Origin: Psychroflexus salis
GTDB taxonomy: Bacteria; Bacteroidota; Bacteroidia; Flavobacteriales; Flavobacteriaceae
DNA: 64,000 nucleotides
NCBI RefSeq assembly: GCF_014640175.1
Contig: NZ_BMGL01000002.1
Location: 1 to 64,000 of the forward strand
Reading direction: 5' to 3'
The position numbers and the translations under genes were made by a program. Of this stretch, positions 14,612-22,553 are shown in pieces. The notes under the pieces are model-generated. The model searched no databases. It had not been told where the DNA came from and was given only the letters and a program-made list of their open reading frames with translations. Every line of letters starts with the position of its first letter. Within the stretch, counting starts at the first letter, position 1.

Positions 14612-14664
14612 AGCATATTTATTAAAATTGTTTTTTACTGCAAAGCGCCCATACAATCAAAATC

Positions 14665-14706
14665 CTAAATCCCAAATCTGAAATCATAAATCAACAATCC
14701 CAAATC
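14665..14706. repeat. Six-copy 7-bp tandem array (NNAAATC)
   Basis: Six consecutive heptamers end in ATC: CTAAATC, CCAAATC, TGAAATC, ATAAATC, AACAATC, CCAAATC. The array fills the gap between the TPR gene and the M56 gene. It resembles in style the short-period repeats that bracket the two four-helix-bundle genes at 19.5 and 22.1 kb, but encloses no gene. Confidence 0.75.
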
Positions 14707-14712
14707 AACAGT

Positions 14713-18734: not shown

Positions 18735-19487
18735 ATGTCTGAAGCTTACGTAAAACATGATATAAAAGACCAGATTGCTACAATTGAATTTTTTCATCCA
18801 GCACACAATTCACTACCAAGTAATATCCTAGCTAAATTAGCTGAAACCATCACCCAAATGGGAAAGGATAAGGATGTTTTGGTTATAGTAATTAAATCGG
18901 GTGGCGACCGAACCTTCTGTGCTGGAGCTAGTTTTAAAGAATTAATTGCTATAGAAGATGAACAAACCGGCGAAAAATTTTTTAGCGGATTTGCCAATGT
19001 AATCAATGCCATGCGTAAATGTCCGAAGTTTATTATTGGTCAAGTACAAGGTAAAACTGTTGGTGGCGGAGTAGGTTTAGCTTCAGCAATGGATTATTGT
19101 ATGGCTACAAAATACGCATCCATTAAATTAAGTGAATTGAACATTGGCATTGGTCCTTTTGTAGTTGGTCCTGCCGTACAGCGTAAATTAGGAGTTAGCG
19201 GTATGTCGCAAATTGCTATCGACGCCAATTCTTTTTATTCACCTGAATGGGCGATGCAAAAAGGATTGTTCACAAAAGTTTTTGAAACTACTGAAGAATT
19301 AGACGAAGCTGTAACCGAAATGGCTAAAAATCTATGTCAATATAATCCAGAAGCAGTGCAACACATGAAGCAAATGTTTTGGCGTGGCACAGAAGATTGG
19401 GATGATTTATTGGCCGAACGTGCTAAAATTAGCGGAAAATTGGTACTGAGTACATTTACAAAGGAGAAGTTGAAGAGATTTAAATAG
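18735..19487 (+). CDS. Enoyl-CoA hydratase/isomerase family protein
   Basis: Crotonase-fold cytosolic enzyme acting on an acyl-CoA. The oxyanion-hole segments are FCAGASFKEL (about residues 57-66) and GKTVGGGVGLAS (about 105-116). The first catalytic-Glu position of the hydratase family is filled (KLSELNIGIGP, about 135). The second hydratase Glu position seems not to be Glu (GMSQIAID), so isomerase, lyase or a specialised hydratase such as methylglutaconyl-CoA hydratase is possible. At 250 aa it is normal. It leads a plus-strand row with a PaaY-like protein and a 2-oxo acid dehydrogenase E2/E1, suggesting branched-chain or aromatic acyl-CoA catabolism. Confidence 0.85.
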   Translation: MSEAYVKHDIKDQIATIEFFHPAHNSLPSNILAKLAETITQMGKDKDVLVIVIKSGGDRTFCAGASFKELIAIEDEQTGEKFFSGFANVINAMRKCPKFIIGQVQGKTVGGGVGLASAMDYCMATKYASIKLSELNIGIGPFVVGPAVQRKLGVSGMSQIAIDANSFYSPEWAMQKGLFTKVFETTEELDEAVTEMAKNLCQYNPEAVQHMKQMFWRGTEDWDDLLAERAKISGKLVLSTFTKEKLKRFK

Positions 19488-19515
19488 TTTAGTTAGTAGT
19501 CTTTAGTTGGTAGAA
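19488..19515 (+). repeat. Left flank repeat of four-helix-bundle unit 1 (14-bp period, two copies)
   Basis: TTTAGTTAGTAGTC followed by TTTAGTTGGTAGAA, period 14. The same unit occurs in reverse complement on the other side of the gene at 19931-19972. It begins directly after the stop codon of the preceding gene. Confidence 0.85.
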
Positions 19516-19552
19516 AGTAGTTTTTTATATTTAACATTTTATCTGAAAAATC

Positions 19553-19921
19553 ATGAAAAGTAAATATCATTTTAATTTTGAAGACTTGAAAGTTTACCAG
19601 AAAGCGATGGATTTTGGTGAAATAGTTTATCATCAAATAAGCAAATTTCCTAAAATTGAAGATTACAGACTTTCTTCACAATTTGCACGAGCTTCAGATT
19701 CTATTGCATTCAATATAGCGGAAGGCTCAGGAAGTTCAGATGCAAGCTTTTTGAATTATTTAAGAATTGCAAGAGATAGGAGTAGGGAGTTTGTTTCAGC
19801 AACTACTAAAGCCTACAAAAGAAATTATATTACATTTGATGAGTATGAAACCAACAGAGTTTTCCTCGTTGAAATTAATAAAATGCTATCTGTTCTAAAG
19901 AAACATTTAGAAAGTAAATAA
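19553..19921 (+). CDS. Four-helix-bundle protein (23S rRNA intervening-sequence family)
   Basis: Small cytosolic protein of 122 aa with the family signature: FEDLKVYQKAMDF at the N-terminus, LSSQFARASDSIAFNIAEGSG near residues 42-62 and YLRIARDRSREF. The fold is the four-helix bundle shared by proteins of 23S rRNA intervening sequences and by the Avd proteins of diversity-generating retroelements. No rRNA or reverse transcriptase is near. The gene is bracketed by oppositely oriented 14-bp repeats and interrupts a metabolic gene row, so it looks inserted. A second, divergent family member lies at 22136. Function unknown; a nucleic-acid-binding role is known only for relatives. Confidence 0.88.
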   Translation: MKSKYHFNFEDLKVYQKAMDFGEIVYHQISKFPKIEDYRLSSQFARASDSIAFNIAEGSGSSDASFLNYLRIARDRSREFVSATTKAYKRNYITFDEYETNRVFLVEINKMLSVLKKHLESK

Positions 19922-19930
19922 TTATTTAAT

Positions 19931-19972
19931 TACTAACTACCAACTAAATACTACCAACTAAAAGCTACCAAC
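19931..19972 (-). repeat. Right flank repeat of four-helix-bundle unit 1 (14-bp period, three copies)
   Basis: TACTAACTACCAAC, TAAATACTACCAAC and TAAAAGCTACCAAC, period exactly 14. The reverse complement (GTTGGTAG plus a variable part ending in A) matches the left flank at 19488-19515. The array ends 2 bp before the ATG of the next gene. Confidence 0.88.
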
Positions 19973-19974
19973 TA

Positions 19975-20583
19975 ATGGCCATTTACAAATTCAAAAACCA
20001 CATACCAGTAATTCACGAATCGAGCTTTGTGCATCCACAAGCTGCAGTTACGGGAAATGTTATCATTGGGAAAGATTGTTATGTTGGACCAGGTGCTGCA
20101 ATACGTGGTGATTGGGGTGAAATTATTTTAGAAGATGGAGTTAACGTACAGGAAAATTGTACGGTACATATGTTTCCGGGGAAGTCCATTGTGCTTAAAA
20201 AAGGAGCGCATGTAGGTCATGGAGCTATAATTCATGGAGCCAATTTAGGCGAAAATTGCTTAATTGGGATGAATTCCGTAATTATGGACGATGCTGAAAT
20301 TGGTAACGAATCTATTGTTGGTGCCATGGCTTTTGTAAAAGCTGAAACTAAAATTCCAAATCGGAGTTTAGTGGTTGGAAATCCAGCCAAAGTAATTAAA
20401 AAAGTTTCTGATGATATGATCGCTTGGAAAACAGCAGGAACTAAATTATATCAACAATTACCAGCCGATTGCCATGAAAGTTTAGAAGAAGTCGAGCCAC
20501 TTCGGGAGATTCCCAAAAACCGACCAAAACAAGAAAATTTTTATCAAACTTTGAATGATTTTATCCGAGAAGATGATGAGTGA
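19975..20583 (+). CDS. PaaY-like hexapeptide-repeat protein (gamma-carbonic anhydrase superfamily)
   Basis: Left-handed beta-helix trimeric protein. Hexapeptide repeats run about residues 15-150 (VIIGKDCYVGPGAAIRGDWG, then VNVQENCTVH). The metal-binding His residues are in VHMFPGKS (about 63) and GHGAIIHGA (about 83 and 88). The family includes gamma-carbonic anhydrases and PaaY, a CoA-thioesterase of phenylacetate catabolism. The C-terminal extension (about 155-202) fits PaaY-type members. The neighbouring enoyl-CoA hydratase supports an acyl-CoA-related role. The ATG lies 2 bp after the right repeat of the inserted four-helix-bundle unit, so the original upstream spacing was altered. Confidence 0.85.
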   Translation: MAIYKFKNHIPVIHESSFVHPQAAVTGNVIIGKDCYVGPGAAIRGDWGEIILEDGVNVQENCTVHMFPGKSIVLKKGAHVGHGAIIHGANLGENCLIGMNSVIMDDAEIGNESIVGAMAFVKAETKIPNRSLVVGNPAKVIKKVSDDMIAWKTAGTKLYQQLPADCHESLEEVEPLREIPKNRPKQENFYQTLNDFIREDDE

Positions 20584-20632
20584 AGACTTTTAGATTGAGT
20601 TTTGAATAGAAAGAGTTGAAAAATTAAAATAG

Positions 20633-20720
20633 CTTAGCGCCTTAGCGTCTTAGCGAGAAAATGAATATTAAGAACAGCTTTGTACCTCAGCCTGCCAGAT
20701 GAAAGGCGTGCAGCTTAGCG
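20633..20720 (+). repeat. Octamer CTTAGCGN array
   Basis: CTTAGCGC, CTTAGCGT and CTTAGCGA stand head to tail (20633-20656), and another CTTAGCG sits at 20714-20720, all in the spacer between the PaaY-like gene and E2. No gene lies inside. The spacer also holds CCTGCCAGATGAAAGGCGTG, less AT-rich than its surroundings. Confidence 0.7.
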
Positions 20721-20734
20721 TGAAATAATAAAAA

Positions 20735-22066
20735 ATGAGTAATCAAGATAAAAAAACAAAATCAGTAGAATTCAAACTCCCCAAAATGGGAGAAAGCATT
20801 ACCGAAGGAACGATTTTAAATTGGTTGATTAATGAAGGTGAAAGCTTTAATGAAGGCGATATTTTAGTTGAAGTAGGTACCGATAAAGTAGATAACGAAG
20901 TTCCCGCTCCGTTTTCAGGAAAGCTGATTGAAACCAAATATGATGCACACGATATTGTAAAAATAGGTGAAATAATTGCTGTGTTAGAAGAATCTGAAGC
21001 TACAGCGCCAAATGCTCAATCTCAAGAATCAATACATGCCAAATCGGAAGATTCTTCAAGTGCTAAAAAGCCTAAAAACCCAGAGAAAAAGACGAATGCT
21101 GCAAAGCCAAATCAAGATGCAAAAGTGCAAACTTCTGCTTGGCAATCAAACAACCGAGGTAATCACTTTTATTCCCCACTAGTCGAAAAAATAGCAAAAG
21201 AGCATCATATTAGTTACGAAGAATTAGCTAGAATTCCAGCAAGCGGTGCAAACGATCGTCTTCAAAAATCAGATATATTTAAGTATTTAGAAGAAGGCAG
21301 ACCAGCACAATTTGCTCAGCCAGTAGCAGAAACAAACCCAGGGTTTCAAGTGCCTGATTTACAATTTGATAAAGGCAAAGGAGAACGCATCAAAATGGAT
21401 CGCATGCGCCAAATGATTGCCGACCACATGGTGTTTTCAAAACATACTTCACCACATGTAACCGCTTATGTAGAAGCCGATTTAACCAACTTGGTGAATT
21501 GGCGAAACCAAAATAAAGCACCTTTTCAAGAGAAAACAGGGGAGAAGCTTACGTTTACACCTTTGTTTATACAAGCAGTAACCAAAGCCATTCAAGATTT
21601 TCCGAAAATCAATTCATCTTTAGACGGCGATGAAATTATTGTAAAAGATCAAATTCATATCGGTATGGCAACAGCCTTACCTAGTGGTAATCTTATTGTT
21701 CCAGTTGTAAAAAACACCGATCAAAAAGACTTAGAAACTTTGGCTAAAAATGTAAATGCATTGGTAGCCAAAGCAAGAGATAATAAATTAACCAGTGATG
21801 AAACTAAGGAAAGTACGTTTACCATATCTAATGTTGGGACTTTCGGAAGTTTAATGGGAACACCGATTATTAATCAGCCAGAAGCTGCTATTTTAGCAAC
21901 GGGCATCATTAAAAAACGAGCAGAAGTAATTGAATATGAAGATGGCGATGAAATTGAAATTAGACAAATGATGTACCTATCACTTTCATTCGATCACAGA
22001 ATTGTAGATGGATTTTTAGCCGGTAGCTTTCTAAGACGTATTGCAGATTATTTGGAGAACTATTAG
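20735..22066 (+). CDS. 2-oxo acid dehydrogenase E2 (dihydrolipoamide acyltransferase)
   Basis: Core acyltransferase of a 2-oxo acid dehydrogenase complex, moving the acyl group from lipoamide to CoA. One lipoyl domain at about residues 11-86 has the lipoylated Lys in GTDKVDNE. A linker rich in Ala, Lys and Ser follows, then a peripheral subunit-binding domain at about 148-188 (YSPLVEKIAKEH, IPASGANDR). The catalytic domain at about 215-443 has the active-site DHRIVDG near the end. At 443 aa it is standard. The E1 fusion 500 bp downstream is the natural partner; an inserted four-helix-bundle unit now separates them. Probably branched-chain specific; E3 is elsewhere. Confidence 0.93.
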   Translation: MSNQDKKTKSVEFKLPKMGESITEGTILNWLINEGESFNEGDILVEVGTDKVDNEVPAPFSGKLIETKYDAHDIVKIGEIIAVLEESEATAPNAQSQESIHAKSEDSSSAKKPKNPEKKTNAAKPNQDAKVQTSAWQSNNRGNHFYSPLVEKIAKEHHISYEELARIPASGANDRLQKSDIFKYLEEGRPAQFAQPVAETNPGFQVPDLQFDKGKGERIKMDRMRQMIADHMVFSKHTSPHVTAYVEADLTNLVNWRNQNKAPFQEKTGEKLTFTPLFIQAVTKAIQDFPKINSSLDGDEIIVKDQIHIGMATALPSGNLIVPVVKNTDQKDLETLAKNVNALVAKARDNKLTSDETKESTFTISNVGTFGSLMGTPIINQPEAAILATGIIKKRAEVIEYEDGDEIEIRQMMYLSLSFDHRIVDGFLAGSFLRRIADYLENY

Positions 22067-22082
22067 TTTTATAATGAATAGA

Positions 22083-22110
22083 TTGAAACAAGACATTTTG
22101 AAACAAGACA
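22083..22110 (+). repeat. Left flank repeat of four-helix-bundle unit 2 (15-bp period, two copies)
   Basis: TTGAAACAAGACA occurs at 22083-22095 and 22098-22110, period 15. Degenerate reverse-complement copies follow the gene at 22516-22553. Confidence 0.8.
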
Positions 22111-22135
22111 AATAGATTTACAATAAAAAAATGAT

Positions 22136-22501
22136 ATGAGAAGACACAATTTTAAAAAGTTATTGATTTGGCAAGAAGCAATGGATTTGATAGATCAAAG
22201 CTACATTCTTACTTCTTCACTTCCTGATTATGAAAAATTTGGTTTGTGCTCTCAAATGAATCGTTCATCTGTTTCAATTGCATCAAATATTGCCGAAGGG
22301 TCTAGCAAGAGAACAAACACACATTTTATAAAGTATTTAAGTGATAGTTTAGGTTCAGCTTTTGAATGGGAAACCCAATTGGTAGTTTGTTTTCGTCAAA
22401 AGTTTATTTCAGAAGAAGATTTCTTGAAACTTGAGAATAATGTACAAGCCTTAAAGAGTAAAATTTCAAACCTTATTGATAAACTTGAATCTGAAAGCTA
22501 A
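22136..22501 (+). CDS. Second four-helix-bundle protein (23S rRNA intervening-sequence family)
   Basis: A 121-aa protein with the same family signature as the gene at 19553: HNFKKLLIWQEAMDL, then SSVSIASNIAEGSSKR (about residues 43-58) and FIKYLSDSLGSAFEWETQL. Similarity between the two is limited outside the core motif, so they represent separate arrivals or an old divergence, not a recent duplication. It stands between E2 and E1 of one complex, bracketed by imperfect opposite-orientation 15-bp repeats. No rRNA gene is nearby. Function unknown. Confidence 0.88.
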   Translation: MRRHNFKKLLIWQEAMDLIDQSYILTSSLPDYEKFGLCSQMNRSSVSIASNIAEGSSKRTNTHFIKYLSDSLGSAFEWETQLVVCFRQKFISEEDFLKLENNVQALKSKISNLIDKLESES

Positions 22502-22515
22502 TTTTAATAACTTTA

Positions 22516-22553
22516 GTCATGGCTCAAAAAGTCGTGATTCTTGATTCAAAAAA
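22516..22553 (-). repeat. Right flank repeat of four-helix-bundle unit 2 (degenerate)
   Basis: GTCATGGCTCAAAAA (22516-22530) and then GTCGTGATTC with TTGATTCAAAA (22531-22551) are imperfect reverse complements of the left unit TTTTGAAACAAGAC (11 of 14 and 11 of 12 positions in the best parts). Confidence 0.6.

What the first reader, a model, noticed from the sequence alone, without database searches (positions are those of the whole stretch)
19488..22553. Two orphan four-helix-bundle genes, each bracketed by short tandem repeats in opposite orientation
Both 23S-IVS-type genes lie in a single metabolic row. Unit 1 (19488-19972) has two 14-bp repeats on the left and three reverse-complement copies on the right. 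Unit 2 (22083-22553) has the same layout with 15-bp units of different sequence. Total lengths are similar (about 485 and 470 bp), yet proteins and repeats differ. Repeat arms adjoin the neighbouring coding sequences (the left array follows a stop codon directly; the right one ends 2 bp before the next ATG). This looks like a class of small mobile or domesticated element in which a four-helix-bundle protein travels with its own flanking array and no transposase. In unit 2 it splits the E2 and E1 genes of one complex.
Basis: partly seen in the sequence, partly recalled or inferred. Interest (0 to 1): 0.78.

Follow-up and report, generated by a model that had tools for sequence, protein, structure and literature searches.

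The report
Gene cassettes bracketed by heptamer arms
Two small genes sitting between metabolic genes are examples of a widespread, apparently undescribed kind of insertion: a tiny gene bracketed by 7-letter repeats whose two sides can pair in the messenger RNA and fold the insert out of the way.

Summary
Unit 1 is as described; unit 2 has a clean left array and a degenerate right one. Both genes are PF05635/TIGR02436 four-helix bundles (4HB, 23S-IVS type). The "14-bp" unit is two heptamers. The pattern is general: in Bacteroidota, and in the few cyanobacterial, gammaproteobacterial, firmicute and Fibrobacter loci seen, 4HB genes lie between other genes inside locus-specific arms with a 7/14/21-nt period. 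The arms are predicted to pair (at least 10 bp) in 106 of 126 folded cassettes, against 123 of 252 with shuffled arms, 67 of 252 with swapped arms and 3 of 41 control genes. Arms resemble each other at different sites when the proteins are at least 60% identical (p=0.001). At the window's two sites, other species of the genus carry a different 4HB, a GxxExxY or a GIY-YIG gene, a decayed copy, or nothing. Intact ORFs look constrained. No transposase lies between the arms and the genome has no RVT_1 match. The closest known thing is the 23S rRNA intervening sequence (S23p ORF in an RNase III stem); the Coxiella one also carries heptamers. Best reading: the mRNA counterpart of that element. RNA processing and movement are inferred, not shown.

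The parts
19488..19522 (+). Left arm of unit 1, directly after the ECH stop codon; heptamer array
19553..19921 (+). Four-helix-bundle (23S-IVS-type) gene of unit 1, 122 aa
   Evidence: PF05635 E=2e-25, TIGR02436 E=7e-24
19928..19974 (+). Right arm of unit 1, reverse-complement heptamer array running into the PaaY start codon
   Evidence: predicted to pair with the left arm
22083..22112 (+). Left arm of unit 2 (two 15-nt copies)
22136..22501 (+). Four-helix-bundle gene of unit 2, 121 aa
   Evidence: PF05635 E=1e-32; AlphaFold model pLDDT 96, TM 0.91 to 2gsc
22516..22553 (+). Right arm of unit 2, degenerate reverse-complement copies
18735..19487 (+). Upstream neighbour of unit 1, enoyl-CoA hydratase family
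   Evidence: PF00378
19975..20583 (+).
   Evidence: PF00132
20735..22066 (+). Upstream neighbour of unit 2, 2-oxoacid dehydrogenase E2
   Evidence: PF00198
22564..24615 (+). Downstream neighbour of unit 2, E1 (fused)
   Evidence: PF00676, PF02779, PF02780

Best explanation
Each unit is an intercistronic IVS-like element: one small ORF (here a 23S-IVS-type four-helix bundle) plus two complementary heptamer arms that belong to it. It fills the gap between the stop codon of one gene and the start codon of the next co-directional gene. In the mRNA the arms pair into a long imperfect stem that loops out the ORF and brings the neighbours' stop and start codons back together, so the insertion is tolerated. 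This is the logic of the 23S rRNA intervening sequence, applied to mRNA. The encoded 4HB, a pentamer in its solved relatives, probably binds the heptamers in RNA or DNA and helps the element persist or spread. SHOWN by computation: family, arms, 7-nt period, arm complementarity beyond chance, arms following the protein across sites, site turnover in relatives, constraint on intact ORFs. INFERRED: co-transcription, stem formation in vivo, RNase III cutting or translational coupling, 4HB binding of heptamers, mode of movement.
For: Inverted arms at z>=4: 43% of 98 genus 4HB genes, 43 of 82 named and 11 of 29 phylum 4HB genes, against 3% of 257 and 9 of 215 controls; one per 60%-identity cluster, 26 of 52. 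Folding (126 of 209 4HB cassettes had co-directional neighbours and gaps of 8-140 nt): 19.5 expected inter-arm pairs against 11.2 shuffled and 7.0 swapped; at least 10 pairs in 106 of 126, 123 of 252 and 67 of 252, and in 3 of 41 control genes; by cluster, own above shuffled in 28 of 31 and above swapped in 28 of 31. Geometry: in 121 of 126 with a confident pair, the residual gap outside the stem is 19 nt (median) against about 482; the 7 empty ECH|PaaY sites have -1 to 7 nt. Period: lag-7 match 0.43-0.44 against 0.29-0.33 at lags 6 and 8 and 0.31 in controls; excess positive in 27 of 31 clusters. Arms differ between species yet match their own partner best at ECH|PaaY (14.0 against 9.7, p=0.0019). 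Arms track protein across different sites (Mantel-like r 0.197, p=0.001, 999 permutations). Site turnover. Median dN/dS 0.13, 0.16, 0.06 for three 4HB sets (23 of 28, 2 of 6, 6 of 6 usable pairs). The Coxiella rRNA IVS has tandem heptamers before S23p and an RNase III stem (PMC4990558 passages). Fold matches pentameric 2gsc (TM 0.91) and, with weak E-value 0.08, DGR Avd (TM 0.80).
Against: Unit 2's own region does not fold better than shuffles. Shuffled arms still pair fairly well, so part of the effect is complementary base composition. Covariation tests at the five other site sets are not significant (p 0.067, 0.097, 0.17, 0.21; the GIY-YIG set goes the wrong way, p 0.87). Of 98 genus copies only 28 are mainly inverted, 25 mainly direct and 45 neither, so looping out cannot be the whole story. 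No RNA data were available. The Coxiella authors think S23p is not made in vivo. Co-directional neighbours (81 of 98, 22 of 29, 73 of 82) are only mildly more frequent than the control baseline of 265 of 356.
Confidence: 0.68

Rival explanations
1. The arms are ordinary heptamer microsatellites made by polymerase slippage in intergenic DNA, and 4HB genes just happen to sit in such places.
For: Heptamer repeats are over-represented in bacteria and slippage has been proposed (PMC4692102 passages). Arrays without a 4HB exist (window 14650-14710).
Against: Slippage alone gives neither complementary arms (own against swapped) nor arms that follow the protein across sites. Period depends on the encoded family: 7 nt for 4HB, a weak 8-9 nt signal in left flanks of GxxExxY, none in left flanks of GIY-YIG. 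Control genes, most of them from the same regions, rarely have arms.
Confidence: 0.1
2. Homing-type selfish cassettes: an encoded nuclease (GIY-YIG, PD-(D/E)XK GxxExxY) cuts the empty site and the cassette is copied in by recombination; 4HB cassettes are moved in trans or are older passengers.
For: The same sites are used by 4HB, GxxExxY and GIY-YIG cassettes. A GIY-YIG element sits at the same point of the conserved N-I-A-E-G motif of four different 4HB genes. Upstream gene ends are duplicated next to cassettes in G025, G013 and G003, 3 of 8 loci tested.
Against: The 4HB proteins match no nuclease family or fold. Cutting could not be tested. It explains spread but not why the arms are complementary. 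It could hold together with the best explanation.
Confidence: 0.35
3. Domesticated regulators: the arms are mRNA processing or stability elements and the 4HB is an RNA-binding regulator tuning the ratio of neighbouring products.
For: Constraint on intact ORFs; recurrent sites beside metabolic genes; Avd, of similar fold, occurs in DGR ribonucleoprotein structures (entry titles).
Against: Loss, frameshift, premature stop, replacement by unrelated ORFs and empty sites among species of one genus argue against an essential role.
Confidence: 0.2
4. Part of a diversity-generating or other retroelement, with the 4HB acting as Avd.
For: Structural match to Avd, TM 0.80 at E 0.08; a DivGenRetAVD hit for unit 1 below its cut-off.
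Against: No RVT_1 match in 11 of 27 genus genomes, this one included; several of these list many 4HB matches (G002 12, G026 12, G007 11).
Confidence: 0.03

Closest known systems
23S rRNA intervening sequence (IVS) with S23p ORF, e.g. Coxiella, Leptospira (PMC4990558, passages read)
   Same: Same protein family by name, similar length (428-444 nt in Coxiella; gaps of 487 and 497 nt here), terminal complementary repeats forming a stem around the ORF, tandem heptamers upstream of the ORF (Coxiella), sporadic presence at conserved sites.
   Different: Located between protein-coding genes, not in rRNA; heptamer arrays on both sides with locus-specific words; ORF constrained; excision by RNase III not shown; the same sites also host GxxExxY and GIY-YIG cassettes.
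Heptamer repeats: cyanobacterial heptanucleotides (STRR, name recalled), Xanthomonas GGGAATC, Beggiatoaceae TAACTGA (PMC4692102, PMC4679880, passages read)
   Same: Intergenic 7-nt arrays, some inverted, some inside operons. 5 of 8 cyanobacterial plasmid 4HB loci examined here (of 19 hits) have arrays at z>=4.
   Different: In the passages read the arrays are not tied to a gene family; PMC4679880 holds no 'four helix' or 'S23'. Here they bracket one protein family.
Avd of diversity-generating retroelements (4dwl, 8ube)
   Same: Four-helix bundle fold, TM 0.76-0.80.
   Different: No RVT_1 match in this genome; Avd model below cut-off.
Free-standing homing endonuclease genes; REP/RAYT elements (recalled)
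   Same: Small intergenic ORF, site turnover; REP/RAYT also pair a gene with repeats.
   Different: The 4HB matches no nuclease or transposase family.

Membership tests
PF05635 / TIGR02436 four-helix-bundle protein | Profile match above curated cut-off | tested here: met
   both genes
23S rRNA intervening sequence | Inserted within an rRNA gene | tested here: not met
   Between protein-coding genes; no Rfam match at gathering threshold in the window
23S rRNA intervening sequence | Complementary termini forming a stem around the ORF | tested here: met
   Predicted: unit 1 clear, unit 2 weak; 106 of 126 cassettes with at least 10 expected pairs
23S rRNA intervening sequence | Excised by RNase III | not testable with these tools
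   needs RNA work
DGR Avd | Associated reverse transcriptase | tested here: not met
   0 RVT_1 matches in G000
DGR Avd | Avd profile above cut-off | tested here: not met
   24.6 bits against cut-off 80 for unit 1; no hit at E<=0.001 for unit 2
Transposon or insertion sequence | Own transposase between the repeats | tested here: not met
   The 4HB is the only ORF of 60 aa or more listed between the arms of either unit
Heptamer (STRR-type) repeats | 7-nt tandem period | tested here: met
   4HB arms as a set; unit 1 period 14 and 7
Homing endonuclease element | Encodes a nuclease | tested here: not met
   4HB units: no nuclease family or fold match. For GxxExxY and GIY-YIG cassettes a nuclease-type domain is present
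Homing endonuclease element | Product cuts the empty site | not testable with these tools
   needs protein work

The most novel reading that the evidence does not exclude
The rRNA IVS is only the rRNA-resident case of a large, pan-bacterial class of IVS-like cassettes that live mainly between operon genes. Each ORF family comes with its own arm grammar (4HB: heptamers; GxxExxY: 8-9-mers; GIY-YIG: palindromes), because the encoded protein reads the repeat, in the 4HB case as a pentamer with one heptamer per subunit. The heptamer microsatellites long noted in cyanobacteria and other bacteria are then arms or scars of these elements.
Probability: 0.45. Interest if true: 0.92.

Novelty: new variant of a known kind. 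Interest (0 to 1): 0.82.

Why it matters
PF05635 proteins are common (a match in 116 of 148 genomes drawn from the window's phylum) and have no known function according to PMC4990558 (passage). Placing them in mRNA-borne IVS-like elements gives a testable function and suggests where rRNA intervening sequences come from. It also offers an explanation other than slippage for heptamer repeats, and shows that three different small ORF families use the same intercistronic sites beside metabolic genes. Stem-mediated looping-out would be a simple way for an insertion to be tolerated inside an operon.

Tried and rejected
Rfam scan of the window: no match at gathering threshold. Phage and viral collections: no 4HB match in phages; none of 49 pattern matches confirmed in viral contigs. 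Co-directionality as evidence: weak. Covariation at the five other site sets: not significant. Unit 2 as a strong stem in this genome: rejected. Retroelement idea: disfavoured for this genome. An inverted-arm rule for GIY-YIG cassettes at ECH|PaaY: rejected (own 7.8, swapped 8.5; by eye each side is palindromic).

Literature: ten searches listed no paper that I recognised as linking 4HB genes to heptamer arms, apart from the Coxiella IVS heptamers. Only listings and abstract starts were seen, plus found passages of five papers (PMC4679880, PMC5524665, PMC4990558, PMC8934634, PMC4692102); no paper was read whole, and subscription papers and bioRxiv preprints are not held.

Rows dropped: 141 4HB ORF hits became 98 and 125 became 119 after coverage, flank and duplicate filters; GxxExxY 52 became 28, GIY-YIG 48 became 23 (long proteins such as UvrC also dropped). 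Of the genus matches, whose list was cut, I fetched a part. The named set is the best 80 of 533 relatives of the query, five titled Psychroflexus, so it overlaps the genus set; one search repeats the main tests with one value per 60%-identity cluster. For one search, sites were told apart by similarity of the next gene, so some same-site pairs may have slipped in. Decayed and odd copies were left out of dN/dS.
Full report
OBSERVATION. The window is the start of contig C2 of a 2.87-Mb genome. The genus is probably Psychroflexus: a named Psychroflexus contig (NZ_JAIQZC010000001.1, 1440482 bp) has the length of contig C1 of the same-genus genome G010. Unit 1 is as described: two 14-nt copies directly after the ECH stop, about three reverse-complement copies running into the next ATG, arms 35 nt and 86% complementary. 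Unit 2 has a clean left array, but its right copies are degenerate and lie farther from the stop and start codons than stated. Both genes match PF05635 and TIGR02436. The genome has a third match, flanked by 7-nt arrays that lie mainly in direct orientation.

GENERALITY. In the genus 26 of 27 genomes have a PF05635 match, in a draw from the phylum 116 of 148. I compared up to 160 nt on each side of 98 genus 4HB genes with 257 other genes from the window and 60 fetched regions. Inverted similarity at z>=4 occurred in 43% against 3%, direct in 29% against 2%, either in 54% against 4%. GxxExxY genes: 46% inverted, 39% direct (n=28). GIY-YIG genes: 26% inverted, 70% direct (n=23). By the stronger arrangement the 98 split into 28 inverted, 25 direct and 45 neither. 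In further sets 11 of 29 phylum loci and 43 of 82 named loci are inverted, against 9 of 215 controls; of 8 cyanobacterial plasmid loci (from 19 hits), 3 are inverted, 2 direct. The 82 come from a scan that keeps the best relatives, so they are not a random sample. By eye, and not among the weak ones (z<3), the Porticoccus, Alcanivorax, Ruminococcus and Fibrobacter loci also have inverted heptamer arms.

HEPTAMERS AND PAIRING. In the arms of 126 4HB cassettes, self-match peaks at lags 7, 14 and 21 (0.432, 0.418, 0.375 left; 0.444, 0.401, 0.357 right; lags 6 and 8 are 0.29-0.33; controls at lag 7 are 0.31). Left flanks of GxxExxY genes show a weak signal at 8-9 nt, left flanks of GIY-YIG genes none. 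Folding gives 19.5 expected inter-arm pairs against 11.2 with dinucleotide-shuffled arms and 7.0 with swapped right arms; at least 10 pairs in 106 of 126, 123 of 252 and 67 of 252, and in 3 of 41 control genes, which are longer on average (662 nt). Shuffled arms still pair fairly well, so part of the effect is complementary base composition. For 8 GxxExxY cassettes the means are 19.8, 7.2 and 11.7; for 3 GIY-YIG cassettes 9.9, 8.9 and 8.8, no difference. In 121 of 126 cassettes with a confident pair, a median of 19 nt remains outside the stem between the neighbours' stop and start codons, instead of about 482 (no control for this number). With one value per 60%-identity cluster the effects remain: own above shuffled and above swapped in 28 of 31 each, lag-7 excess in 27 of 31. 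Unit 1's region folds well (z -4.2); unit 2's does not (z +1.1).

ARMS BELONG TO THE ELEMENT. For cassettes at different sites, mean arm similarity is 23.3-23.9 when the proteins are at least 60% identical, 18.0 at 50-60% and 16.0-16.6 below 50% (Mantel-like r 0.197, p 0.001). At ECH|PaaY the arms differ between species but match their own partner better than others' (14.0 against 9.7, p 0.0019). Other sets: E2|E1 4HB p 0.21 and 0.17, thiolase site 0.067, E2|E1 GxxExxY 0.097, ECH|PaaY GIY-YIG 0.87.

SITE TURNOVER. Among 27 genus genomes I could place ECH|PaaY in 26: 10 with a 4HB ORF (G003's is cut by a stop codon; G007's runs on into the next gene; G013's needs a TTG start), 5 GIY-YIG, 3 decayed, 1 gap of 93 nt without ORF, 7 empty with -1 to 7 nt between the genes. 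E2|E1 in 25: 9 4HB of two divergent types, 11 GxxExxY, 1 frameshifted GxxExxY, 1 arms-only remnant, 3 empty (14-51 nt). I assigned these classes by reading the printed ORFs and gaps; six examples were checked against Pfam and NCBIfam. In G026 a GxxExxY cassette sits behind the start of a decayed 4HB gene of the MRRHNFKK type; G013 and G003 show a shorter, less certain one. In a draw of 60 family-level genomes, 23 had the E1 match; in 21 loci examined (own genome, a contig-edge locus and a second fragment left out) the longest ORF in the gap was a 4HB in 2, GIY-YIG in 1, another gene of 323-360 codons in 10; 1 gap held arms only and 7 no gene-sized ORF, two of these read as gap 0 and possibly parsing failures. 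Median pairwise dN/dS is 0.13, 0.16 and 0.06 for three 4HB sets, 0.12 for GxxExxY and 0.09 for GIY-YIG; many pairs are saturated and the second set rests on 2 usable pairs.

MECHANISM. The closest known object is the 23S rRNA IVS: an S23p ORF inside a stem cut by RNase III. In Coxiella tandem heptamers lie just before the ORF and the RNase III site is at the first of them (PMC4990558, passages). The unit 2 protein model (pLDDT 96) matches 2gsc (TM 0.91), described as a homopentamer (PMC4990558 passage), 2rld (five chains) and, at a weak E-value of 0.08, Avd (TM 0.80). I therefore propose an mRNA-borne IVS-like element whose arms loop the ORF out and preserve the stop-start juxtaposition of its neighbours. 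Whether RNase III cuts the stem, whether translation is coupled across it, whether the 4HB reads the heptamers and how the cassettes move is inference. No reverse transcriptase match exists in this genome. A homing model is plausible for the two nuclease-like families and may hold together with this one.

NOVELTY. Ten library searches listed no description of 4HB genes in intercistronic heptamer arms. The library lacks most subscription papers. I rate it a new variant of a known kind (the IVS), possibly a broader class.

Noticed in passing
L205:1054-1340, L331, L332, L333: A GIY-YIG ORF element with terminal inverted repeats (ACCTGTGAAAT / ATTTCACAGGT) lies at the same point of the conserved N-I-A-E-G motif of four different 4HB genes in four genomes (in L332 the right repeat was not found by the exact pattern).
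   Followed up: partly
L335:300-1900 (G003:C34): Tandem GIY-YIG units of about 364 nt, eight listed in a row, each followed by what looks like a tRNA 3' end. The tRNA was not tested.
   Followed up: no
L102 (G025), L136 (G013), L137 (G003): The 3' end of the upstream gene is duplicated beside the cassette (58 nt 98%, 27 nt 93%, 18 nt 94%; 3 of 8 loci tested); in G025 the whole GIY-YIG cassette is duplicated.
   Followed up: partly
window 20630-20730: The PaaY|E2 gap holds CTTAGCG words like the right arm of GxxExxY cassettes, with no gene-sized ORF; similar words occur in several of 8 relatives printed.
   Followed up: partly
window 14650-14710: A 7-nt period AT-rich array beside the end of a minus-strand gene, without a 4HB.
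   Followed up: no
L337 (E2|E1 gap of 87 nt): GxxExxY-type left and right arms joined with no ORF between them, as if the ORF had been lost.
   Followed up: no
L148/L150 (G019): The E1 gene is matched in two pieces, so it may be frameshifted in that assembly.
   Followed up: no
L001 and similar loci: 4HB genes beside what look like polysaccharide genes (neuA/neuC-like, names recalled) often have long direct or mixed arrays rather than short inverted arms.
   Followed up: partly
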